DNA from: Candidatus Woesearchaeota archaeon B3_Woes
Lineage (GTDB): Archaea; Nanobdellota; Nanobdellia; Woesearchaeales; B3-WOES
NCBI GenBank assembly: GCA_005222965.1
Contig: NJBG01000001.1
Location: forward strand, 146,323-210,322
Length of the DNA stretch: 64,000 nt
Reading direction: 5' to 3'
The notes under the pieces were generated by a model that searched no databases, was not told the origin of the DNA, and saw only the letters and a program-made list of their open reading frames with translations. Within the stretch, counting starts at the first letter, position 1, and every line of letters starts with the position of its first letter. The position numbers and the translations under genes are program-made. Below are positions 10,317 to 51,673 of the stretch, piece after piece.

Positions 10317-10448
10317 TTATCTTGCTTTAACCTTTGTTGTTGTTGTTCTTGGCTTAAACAACATTTTACTTCCACAATAAGGACACCTTATCCTTTTGCC
10401 TGTTAAAGATACTTTCTTATTACAATCAAAACATTTATACTTTATCAT
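10317..10448 (-). CDS. rpoP: DNA-directed RNA polymerase subunit P (Rpb12-like)
   Basis: A 43-residue gene too short for many ORF callers. ATG 10448 overlaps the L37Ae stop in an ATGA arrangement and the stop is one nucleotide before prefoldin beta. The protein starts MIKYKCFDCNKKV and has a single zinc ribbon with Cys at positions 6, 9, 22 and 25, followed by a basic tail. Length, zinc ribbon and position between L37Ae and prefoldin beta all match archaeal subunit P, which helps hold the RpoD-RpoL platform of RNA polymerase. Confidence 0.92.
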   Translation of the reverse strand: MIKYKCFDCNKKVSLTGKRIRCPYCGSKMLFKPRTTTTKVKAR

Positions 10449-10747
10449 TTTTTATCCTCTTTACTATCTGATGGTTTTTCTTCTGATTTAATAACTTTTT
10501 CTTCTTCTTTAACTGTTCTCTTTTTTCCAATAGAATAAGCTCTTCCTGCAAATTTAACTTTACATGATTTGCAAAACCAGATTCCTGCTGCTTCTCTTCT
10601 GACATTTTTTTTGCTACAATAAGGACAGATGTGTCTTCCTCTATGTCCTGACTCTATCTCAGCAACCTTTTCTTTTAAACGTCTACCATACCTAGGACCA
10701 AATCTTTTAGTCGATGATTTTTTCCGTTTTTGTTTTTTTGCTGCCAT
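10445..10747 (-). CDS. rpl37ae: Large subunit ribosomal protein L37Ae (eL43)
   Basis: 100 residues. It shows the basic N-terminus with RFGPRYGRRLK, the zinc ribbon CPYC...CKSC (about residues 42-62) and the conserved GIWFC segment. It binds 23S rRNA on the large subunit surface. The C-terminus is longer than usual, with about 25 extra residues rich in Lys and Glu. It is the first protein gene after tRNA-Pro (27 nt gap on the same strand), so the tRNA may be excised from the same primary transcript. Confidence 0.95.
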   Translation of the reverse strand: MAAKKQKRKKSSTKRFGPRYGRRLKEKVAEIESGHRGRHICPYCSKKNVRREAAGIWFCKSCKVKFAGRAYSIGKKRTVKEEEKVIKSEEKPSDSKEDKK

Positions 10748-10773: not shown

Positions 10774-10933
10774 TGGGGCTACCCGGACTTTCACCAATGC
10801 GAAAGTAGTGATCCGATTTCGCGGTTGTTTTGAACCGGGATCATCTGGTTTTTTTGTGTATCACACCCAAACCAGAAAGGCTAACCAAGTTACCCCATAG
10901 CTTAATGTTATATAATTAAAATTATATAATCCC
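10774..10933 (-). tRNA. tRNA-Pro (UGG) with three introns
   Basis: Exons, 5' to 3' on the minus strand: 10933-10931 (nt 1-3), 10901-10866 (nt 4-37), 10849-10829 (nt 38-59), 10787-10774 (nt 60-73). Removing introns of 29, 16 and 41 nt gives a perfect 74-nt cloverleaf: acceptor GGGGCTA/TAGCCCC, D-stem GGGT/GCCT with G18G19, anticodon stem TCTGG/CCAGA with loop TTTGGGA (anticodon TGG), four-nt variable loop TGAT, T-stem CCCGG/CCGGG and loop TTCAAAT; discriminator A. The introns sit at 3/4, 37/38 and 59/60. Intron 1 has a textbook bulge-helix-bulge: central helix AATG/CATT, bulges GGA and AAG, both cut after the second base. Intron 3 has central helix TTCA/TGAA with bulges AAA and AGT. Intron 2 has a relaxed motif. 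Splicing would need the tRNA endonuclease. Confidence 0.93.
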
Positions 10934-11038
10934 ATTCTAGAGGTAACTTTAAATTGTAGATAATCTTTGGTTTTTAAATCTATCGGTAATACATTGTTTT
11001 CCGACATATTTATATATTGTTCACATATACAAAAAGAT

Positions 11039-51410: not shown

Positions 51411-51488
51411 TAGAATGGCAAATGGTTACGCCCATTTGATATGCAATAAGCGACATTCAAAGCTAAAGCTTTGAAATCCCTTCAACTT
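51401..51488 (+). repeat. 88-bp-period partial duplication of the tRNA-Arg 5' end with hairpins
   Basis: GCCCCTGTAGTAGAATGG (51401-51418) repeats the tRNA-Arg 5' end (51489-51506) with one mismatch, start-to-start distance 88 bp. The 70 bp between form two hairpins: CAAATGG/CCATTTG with a six-base loop and TTCAAAGC/GCTTTGAA with a four-base loop. The copy lacks the rest of the cloverleaf and is not a tRNA gene. The same period and design are seen at tRNA-Gln. Between tRNA-Arg and asd (51583-51802) is another related repeat, listed separately. Confidence 0.72.
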
Positions 51489-51582
51489 GCCCCTGTAGTA
51501 TAATGGATAATATACGACCTTGCGGAGTAATATCAATCTGCACAAAAAGGTTGAGATCGGAGTTCAATTCTCCGCTGGGGCA
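51489..51582 (+). tRNA. tRNA-Arg (GCG) with one intron
   Basis: Exons 51489-51525 and 51548-51582 with a 22-nt intron at 37/38 (51526-51547). Acceptor GCCCCTG/CTGGGGC has one T-T mismatch at 6-67; D-stem GTAT/ATAT; anticodon stem CGACC/GGTTG with loop TTGCGGA (anticodon GCG); variable loop AGAT; T-arm CGGAG-TTCAATT-CTCCG; discriminator A; no encoded CCA. The intron has a relaxed bulge-helix-bulge (TTG/CAA with bulges GGA and AAA, cuts after the second base). Decodes CGC and CGU. Confidence 0.88.
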
Positions 51583-51673
51583 TAAATTTATAAGTAAAGT
51601 TAGGAACATAATGTAAGATCAAAAATAAGAATTCTCGAGATATACAAAACTATTGTTTTTATCTATTATTAGT

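What the first reader, a model, noticed from the sequence alone, without database searches (positions are those of the whole stretch)
10774..10933. tRNA-Pro(UGG) gene interrupted three times, including an acceptor-stem intron at 3/4
Seen: only removal of introns at 3/4 (29 nt), 37/38 (16 nt) and 59/60 (41 nt) gives a full cloverleaf with a seven-bp acceptor stem, the UGG anticodon and a consensus T-loop TTCAAAT. Each junction lies after the second base of a three-base bulge. Intron 1 has central helix AATG/CATT whose first arm includes leader bases upstream of nucleotide 1, so splicing at 3/4 depends on the 5' leader and should precede 5' end maturation. Known: archaeal tRNAs may carry several noncanonical introns, mainly reported for Thermoproteales. 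Inference: three introns in one tRNA of a DPANN-like archaeon imply an endonuclease with broad specificity.
Basis: partly seen in the sequence, partly recalled or inferred. Interest (0 to 1): 0.88.

Follow-up and report, generated by a model that had tools for sequence, protein, structure and literature searches.

The report
Thrice-interrupted proline tRNA with leader-dependent splicing
In a tiny archaeon of the Woesearchaeota group, the gene for the only proline tRNA we could find is broken by three small introns, one sitting in the very first stem, where cutting it out appears to need a partner helix formed by RNA upstream of the tRNA; it matters because it fixes an unusual order of tRNA maturation and shows that an ordinary-looking splicing enzyme can live with oddly placed introns.

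Summary
In detail: on the minus strand, 10933 to 10774, lies a tRNA-Pro(UGG) gene with introns at 3/4 (29 nt), 37/38 (16 nt) and 59/60 (41 nt). Standard tRNA models miss it; the spliced sequence is called tRNA-Pro(tgg). Comparison settles the 3/4 intron: 21 more tRNA-Pro(UGG) genes have it, 20 across many families of the same order (Woesearchaeota) and one in another order of the class. In all 21 loci tested quantitatively the bulge-helix-bulge (BHB) central helix is fully paired, in about nine sequence versions. New here: the 5' leader is complementary not just to nt 5-7 but to the D-arm (13 bp in the window), its promoter box lies about 15 nt further upstream than in relatives without the intron, and three intron-less relatives keep a leader remnant. 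Folding predicts that this helix excludes the acceptor stem until the intron is removed, so 3/4 splicing should precede 5' maturation. A broad-specificity endonuclease is not supported: the order has a single EndA without the Crenarchaea-type loop, and motifs are mostly canonical; only positions are unusual. 3/4 introns and three-intron tRNAs are already reported in Thermoproteales, so this is a new variant of a known kind. No RNA data were available.

The parts
10931..10933 (-). tRNA-Pro(UGG) exon 1, nt 1-3 (GGG)
   Evidence: pairs with 70-72 CCC; contiguous GGGGCTA in relatives without the 3/4 intron
10902..10930 (-). intron 1 at 3/4, 29 nt, hairpin TTATATAA/TTATATAA, 3' end CATTAA
   Evidence: BHB AATG GG|A ... 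CATT AA|G; conserved with compensatory change in 21/21 loci
10866..10901 (-). exon 2, nt 4-37 (rest of acceptor 5' strand, D-arm, anticodon UGG)
   Evidence: model R1 hit 60.4 bits, only credible one in the genome
10850..10865 (-). intron 2 at 37/38, 16 nt (canonical position, relaxed BHB with one G-A mismatch)
10829..10849 (-). exon 3, nt 38-59
10788..10828 (-). intron 3 at 59/60, 41 nt
   Evidence: TTCA/TGAA central helix; 84 homologous 59/60 introns in the order, 75 with 4/4 pairs
10774..10787 (-). exon 4, nt 60-73 (3' T-stem, acceptor 3' strand, A73)
10934..10936 (-). leader nt -3 to -1 (AAT), 5' part of the BHB central helix together with G1
   Evidence: pairs with CATT of intron 1; covaries across 20 distinct rows
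10937..10949 (-). leader helper segment AAGTTACCTCTAG, complementary to nt 5-17a (13 bp, U8 bulged)
   Evidence: MFE of pre-tRNA; stronger leader pairing than in 115 genes without the intron
10971..10978 (-). TATA-like box TTTAAAAA, about 41 nt (centre) upstream of G1
   Evidence: median 47.5 nt in 3/4 genes vs 33 nt in others
10445..10747 (-). downstream gene, ribosomal protein L37Ae-like (own reading of the ORF), an apparently conserved neighbour of this tRNA in many relatives
   Evidence: ORF list and similar downstream reading frames seen by eye

Best explanation
This is a working, single-copy tRNA-Pro(UGG) gene with three BHB introns removed by the ordinary archaeal pathway (EndA cleavage, RtcB joining). 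The 3/4 motif cannot form from the tRNA alone: leader nt -3 to -1 with G1 make one strand of the central helix, and a leader segment pairs with nt 5-17a (acceptor nt 5-7 and D-arm) as the exon-side helix. That leader:D-arm helix excludes the acceptor and D stems, so EndA must cut intron 1 while the 5' leader is still attached, plausibly as soon as about 18 nt of the tRNA body are transcribed. Joining nt 3 to nt 4 lets the acceptor stem form, displaces the leader, and allows RNase P and 3' processing. The 37/38 and 59/60 introns have self-contained BHBs and can be removed independently. Shown by sequence: exons, introns, motif conservation, covariation, leader length, gene content. Inferred: cleavage, order of steps, co-transcriptional timing.
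For: Exact cloverleaf after splicing. 3/4 intron in 22 tRNA-Pro genes. In 21 unique loci tested, 21/21 perfect central helices of about 9 sequence types; 20-row alignment 92% cells paired, 52 double-change cells, 0/500 shuffles, slid controls 19-46% paired. Leader duplex with nt 5-20: median -13.1 vs -7.9 kcal/mol in 115 genes without the intron, Mann-Whitney p=1e-9. Promoter box 47.5 vs 33 nt from G1, p=4e-8. Remnant leader in intron-less G001, G196, G271. In the window acceptor-stem probability 0.00 unspliced, 0.97 all spliced; leader:D-arm pairs 12.8 to 0.1. EndA, RtcB and RNase P RNA present. Proline codons abundant in window ORFs.
Against: No RNA evidence. The energy model puts the strict BHB register 2.1 kcal/mol above the optimum, in the window and as median, and central-helix probability is low (0.03 in the window). 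Leader pairing with own versus swapped D-arms is not stronger (-13.3 vs -13.0), because the D-arm hardly varies, so the helper helix rests on complementarity rather than covariation; L194 lacks it. In several relatives the leader helix is predicted to persist after splicing. Genes sampled are related, so the p-values overstate independence.
Confidence: 0.85

Rival explanations
1. The gene is a pseudogene or a degenerate copy, and an intact tRNA-Pro(UGG) serves the cell.
For: Assembly 96% complete in 4 contigs; the tRNA family model misses the gene.
Against: No other tRNA-Pro-like 5' half even at E<=10; the two weak hits do not look like tRNA and L228 lies in coding-like sequence. All exon pairs are intact and the structure is shared by 21 other genes with compensatory changes.
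Confidence: 0.03
2. There is no 3/4 intron: the encoded 5' end TAA-GCTA is matured and nt 1-3 are replaced by 3'-5' polymerase editing (Thg1-like protein), as in some mitochondria, whose 5' editing also affects nt 1-3 (own knowledge).
For: The unspliced acceptor mismatches exactly nt 1-3; ARAGORN even calls such a tRNA if introns 2 and 3 are removed.
Against: GGG lies upstream in all 21 analysed loci with a covarying central helix; contiguous GGG in relatives; no Thg1 family match above cut-off in the genome (best 14.3 bits, cut-off 29.2).
Confidence: 0.03
3. The 3/4 intron is real, but the leader:D-arm complementarity is a by-product of ancestry and composition; only leader nt -6 to -1 matter.
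For: No gain over swapped D-arms; individual shuffle tests are mostly weak (median z -1.3); L194 lacks the helix.
Against: 20 of 21 loci have it, with a strong contrast to 115 genes without the intron, and leaders are longer; A15 genomes carry U opposite it (L030, L065).
Confidence: 0.2
4. Trans-splicing: exon 1 (nt 1-3) and the rest come from separate transcripts.
For: Split tRNAs exist in Nanoarchaeum and Crenarchaeota with BHB formed by leader sequences (PMC3218864).
Against: Exon 1 lies 29 nt upstream on the same strand with a promoter box above it and a closed hairpin intron.
Confidence: 0.01

Closest known systems
3/4 introns of Thermoproteales tRNAs (Sugahara 2008, cited in PMC4090602)
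   Same: same insertion point in the acceptor stem; by geometry their BHB must also use leader bases
   Different: different phylum (DPANN class) and, by the literature, a heterotetrameric enzyme with specificity loop there; here a single-gene EndA without that loop, and a leader:D-arm helper helix. Whether Thermoproteales leaders have such a helix was not tested.
Three-intron tRNA-Pro(UGG) of Pyrobaculum islandicum (PMC4090602)
   Same: same isoacceptor, three BHB introns including 37/38
   Different: its noncanonical positions are 25/26 and 56/57, here 3/4 and 59/60
Split tRNAs of Nanoarchaeum equitans and others (PMC3218864)
   Same: BHB assembled with leader sequence outside the mature tRNA
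   Different: cis intron here; N. equitans lacks RNase P and tRNA leaders (PMC3491384), this genome has RNase P RNA and this gene a long leader

Membership tests
tRNA-Pro(UGG) | full cloverleaf with UGG anticodon after splicing | tested here: met
archaeal BHB tRNA introns | 4-bp central helix, two 3-nt bulges, cut after second bulge base | tested here: met
   perfect at 3/4 and 59/60; one mismatch at 37/38
archaeal BHB tRNA introns | excision and exon joining in the cell | not testable with these tools
   no RNA data
homotetramer (alpha-4) type EndA | single gene with N- and C-terminal domains, no second subunit | tested here: met
homotetramer (alpha-4) type EndA | oligomeric state | not testable with these tools
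   inferred from gene count only
broad-specificity EndA with CSL | loop insertion before the LSLIE motif as in Aeropyrum | tested here: not met
   absent in own and 29 relatives, as in M. jannaschii
broad-specificity epsilon-2 EndA with ASL | three-unit fused subunit with ASL | tested here: not met
   194 aa, one PF01974 domain; the ARMAN-2 chain is 395 aa

The most novel reading that the evidence does not exclude
The 5' leader works as a built-in folding guide: it locks the 5' part of the nascent tRNA in a non-cloverleaf hairpin that is the substrate of the splicing enzyme, and intron removal switches the RNA to the cloverleaf. This makes intron removal a compulsory first step before 5' processing, in a lineage with an EndA that lacks the known specificity loop.
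Probability: 0.5. Interest if true: 0.7.

Novelty: new variant of a known kind. Interest (0 to 1): 0.52.

Why it matters
It extends acceptor-stem tRNA introns from Thermoproteales to a DPANN lineage, shows them conserved with covariation and absent in some close relatives, ties them to a longer leader pairing with the D-arm, and weakens the usual link between unusual intron positions and specificity loops in the splicing enzyme. It also shows why standard tRNA models can miss tRNA-Pro in such genomes.

Tried and rejected
Two first parsers of the homologues failed through fuzzy shifts and a too strict loop length and were replaced. Of the loose-pattern phylum hits, four of the five inspected are not tRNAs (L233, L234, L236, L238); L235 is real. 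Thg1 editing, pseudogene and split-gene readings rejected as above. Swap control for leader pairing was negative and is reported. Literature search for Woesearchaeota tRNA introns found only a paper on rRNA group I introns. Sugahara 2008 itself was not read; its content is cited through PMC4090602.

Full report
Check of the observation. The gene lies on the minus strand of the window, 10933 down to 10774. Removing 10902-10930, 10850-10865 and 10788-10828 gives GGGGCTATGGGGTAACTTGGTTAGCCTTTCTGGTTTGGGACCAGATGATCCCGGTTCAAATCCGGGTAGCCCCA, which ARAGORN calls tRNA-Pro(tgg). Unspliced it is found neither by ARAGORN nor by Rfam RF00005, even at E 1. A model of nt 4-37 (R1) finds one credible copy in the genome at E up to 10.

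The 3/4 intron is real by comparison. First hits showed the same layout in G033, G006 and G017. A GTDB-wide scan with the signature AAGCYRTGGGGTARCTTGG gave 12 archaeal loci, all on MAGs named Woesearchaeota, Nanoarchaeota or (SM23-78) Euryarchaeota, plus four bacterial chance hits. R1 hit 241 of 288 genomes of the order; I fetched 100 more loci and parsed them. Twenty-one unique loci, the window included, carry the intron, in about 11 families; a 22nd, L235, is in another order of the same class (its central helix was read by eye only). The 21 were tested quantitatively: all have 4 of 4 central pairs, in versions such as AATG/CATT, TACG/CGTA, CATG/CATG, CACG/CGTG, TGCG/CGCA and TGTG/CACA, with bulges GG|A or GG|T and AA|G, TA|G or AT|G. 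The pair count on 20 distinct rows gives 92% paired cells and 52 cells with changes on both sides, against 73% and 17 in shuffles; the central helix is 100% paired with double changes at 3 of 4 pairs.

The leader. By geometry the 3/4 motif needs leader nt -3 to -1. The window leader also holds AAGTTACCTCTAG, the complement of nt 5-17a with U8 bulged. Corresponding segments (AGCTGCCC, AAGCTACC, AGCTATCCC, GTTGCTCC and so on) stand in 20 of 21 loci. Pairing energy with nt 5-20 has median -13.1 kcal/mol, against -7.9 in 115 tRNA-Pro genes without the intron (p=1e-9). Own versus swapped D-arms do not differ, since the D-arm is nearly invariant. The TATA-like box lies a median 47.5 nt from G1, against 33 nt (p=4e-8). 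With a box A about 27 nt upstream of the start (reported for N. equitans CRISPR promoters, PMC3491384) the predicted window transcript starts near -18, just including the helper segment. G001, G196 and G271 lack the intron but keep leaders with a complement to the D-arm, best read as intron loss, though an ancestral state before gain is not excluded. Folding: in the window, acceptor-stem probability is 0.00 with intron 1 present and 0.97 after full splicing, while leader:D-arm pairs fall from 12.8 to 0.1; relatives vary. The strict BHB costs 2.1 kcal/mol over the model optimum in the window and as median.

The other introns. In the order, 84 introns at 59/60 (75 with 4/4 central pairs, TTCA/TGAA and TTCG/CGAA covarying at nt 57) and 36 at 37/38 (24 with 4/4) were measured. 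Inner helices at 59/60 are often weak. The window's 37/38 intron has one mismatch.

Machinery. EndA is a single 194-aa protein with both domains, closest among solved structures to N. equitans alpha and M. jannaschii EndA. No second subunit is found; nearly every genome of the order has one match. The Crenarchaea-specific loop is absent in it and in 29 relatives. RtcB and RNase P RNA are present. The co-evolution view links diversified intron positions to enzymes with CSL or ASL (PMC12397907); this lineage has the positions without the CSL, though mostly with canonical motifs.

Known background. Introns at 3/4 are reported for certain Thermoproteales, and a three-intron tRNA-Pro(UGG) for Pyrobaculum islandicum (PMC4090602); three is the reported maximum (PMC4033280, PMC8450103). 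I found no report for Woesearchaeota in the open library, which misses most subscription papers.

Verdict. Real gene, real 3/4 intron, new variant of a known kind. The new and testable part is the leader helper helix and the order of processing it implies.

Noticed in passing
L022 1501-1598 (own genome): tRNA-Asn(GUU) with an apparent T-arm intron at 53/54, central helix CGGC/GTCG.
   Followed up: partly
L029 (own genome, C1:82814-82870): tRNA-Val(UAC) 5' part ends in the T-loop, suggesting a further T-loop intron.
   Followed up: no
window 51488-51583 (+): ARAGORN reports a four-base anticodon; looks like tRNA-Arg(GCG) with a 37/38 intron.
   Followed up: partly
L115 and L173: tRNA-Pro(UGG) of relatives with an intron at about 53/54 in place of 59/60.
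   Followed up: no
L058, L191, L194: tRNA-Pro with an extra insert in the D-loop; L058 and L194 also have the 3/4 intron.
   Followed up: no
L027 (own genome): Interrupted tRNA with a long insert holding box C- and D-like motifs, perhaps tRNA-Trp with an intron-borne C/D guide RNA.
   Followed up: no
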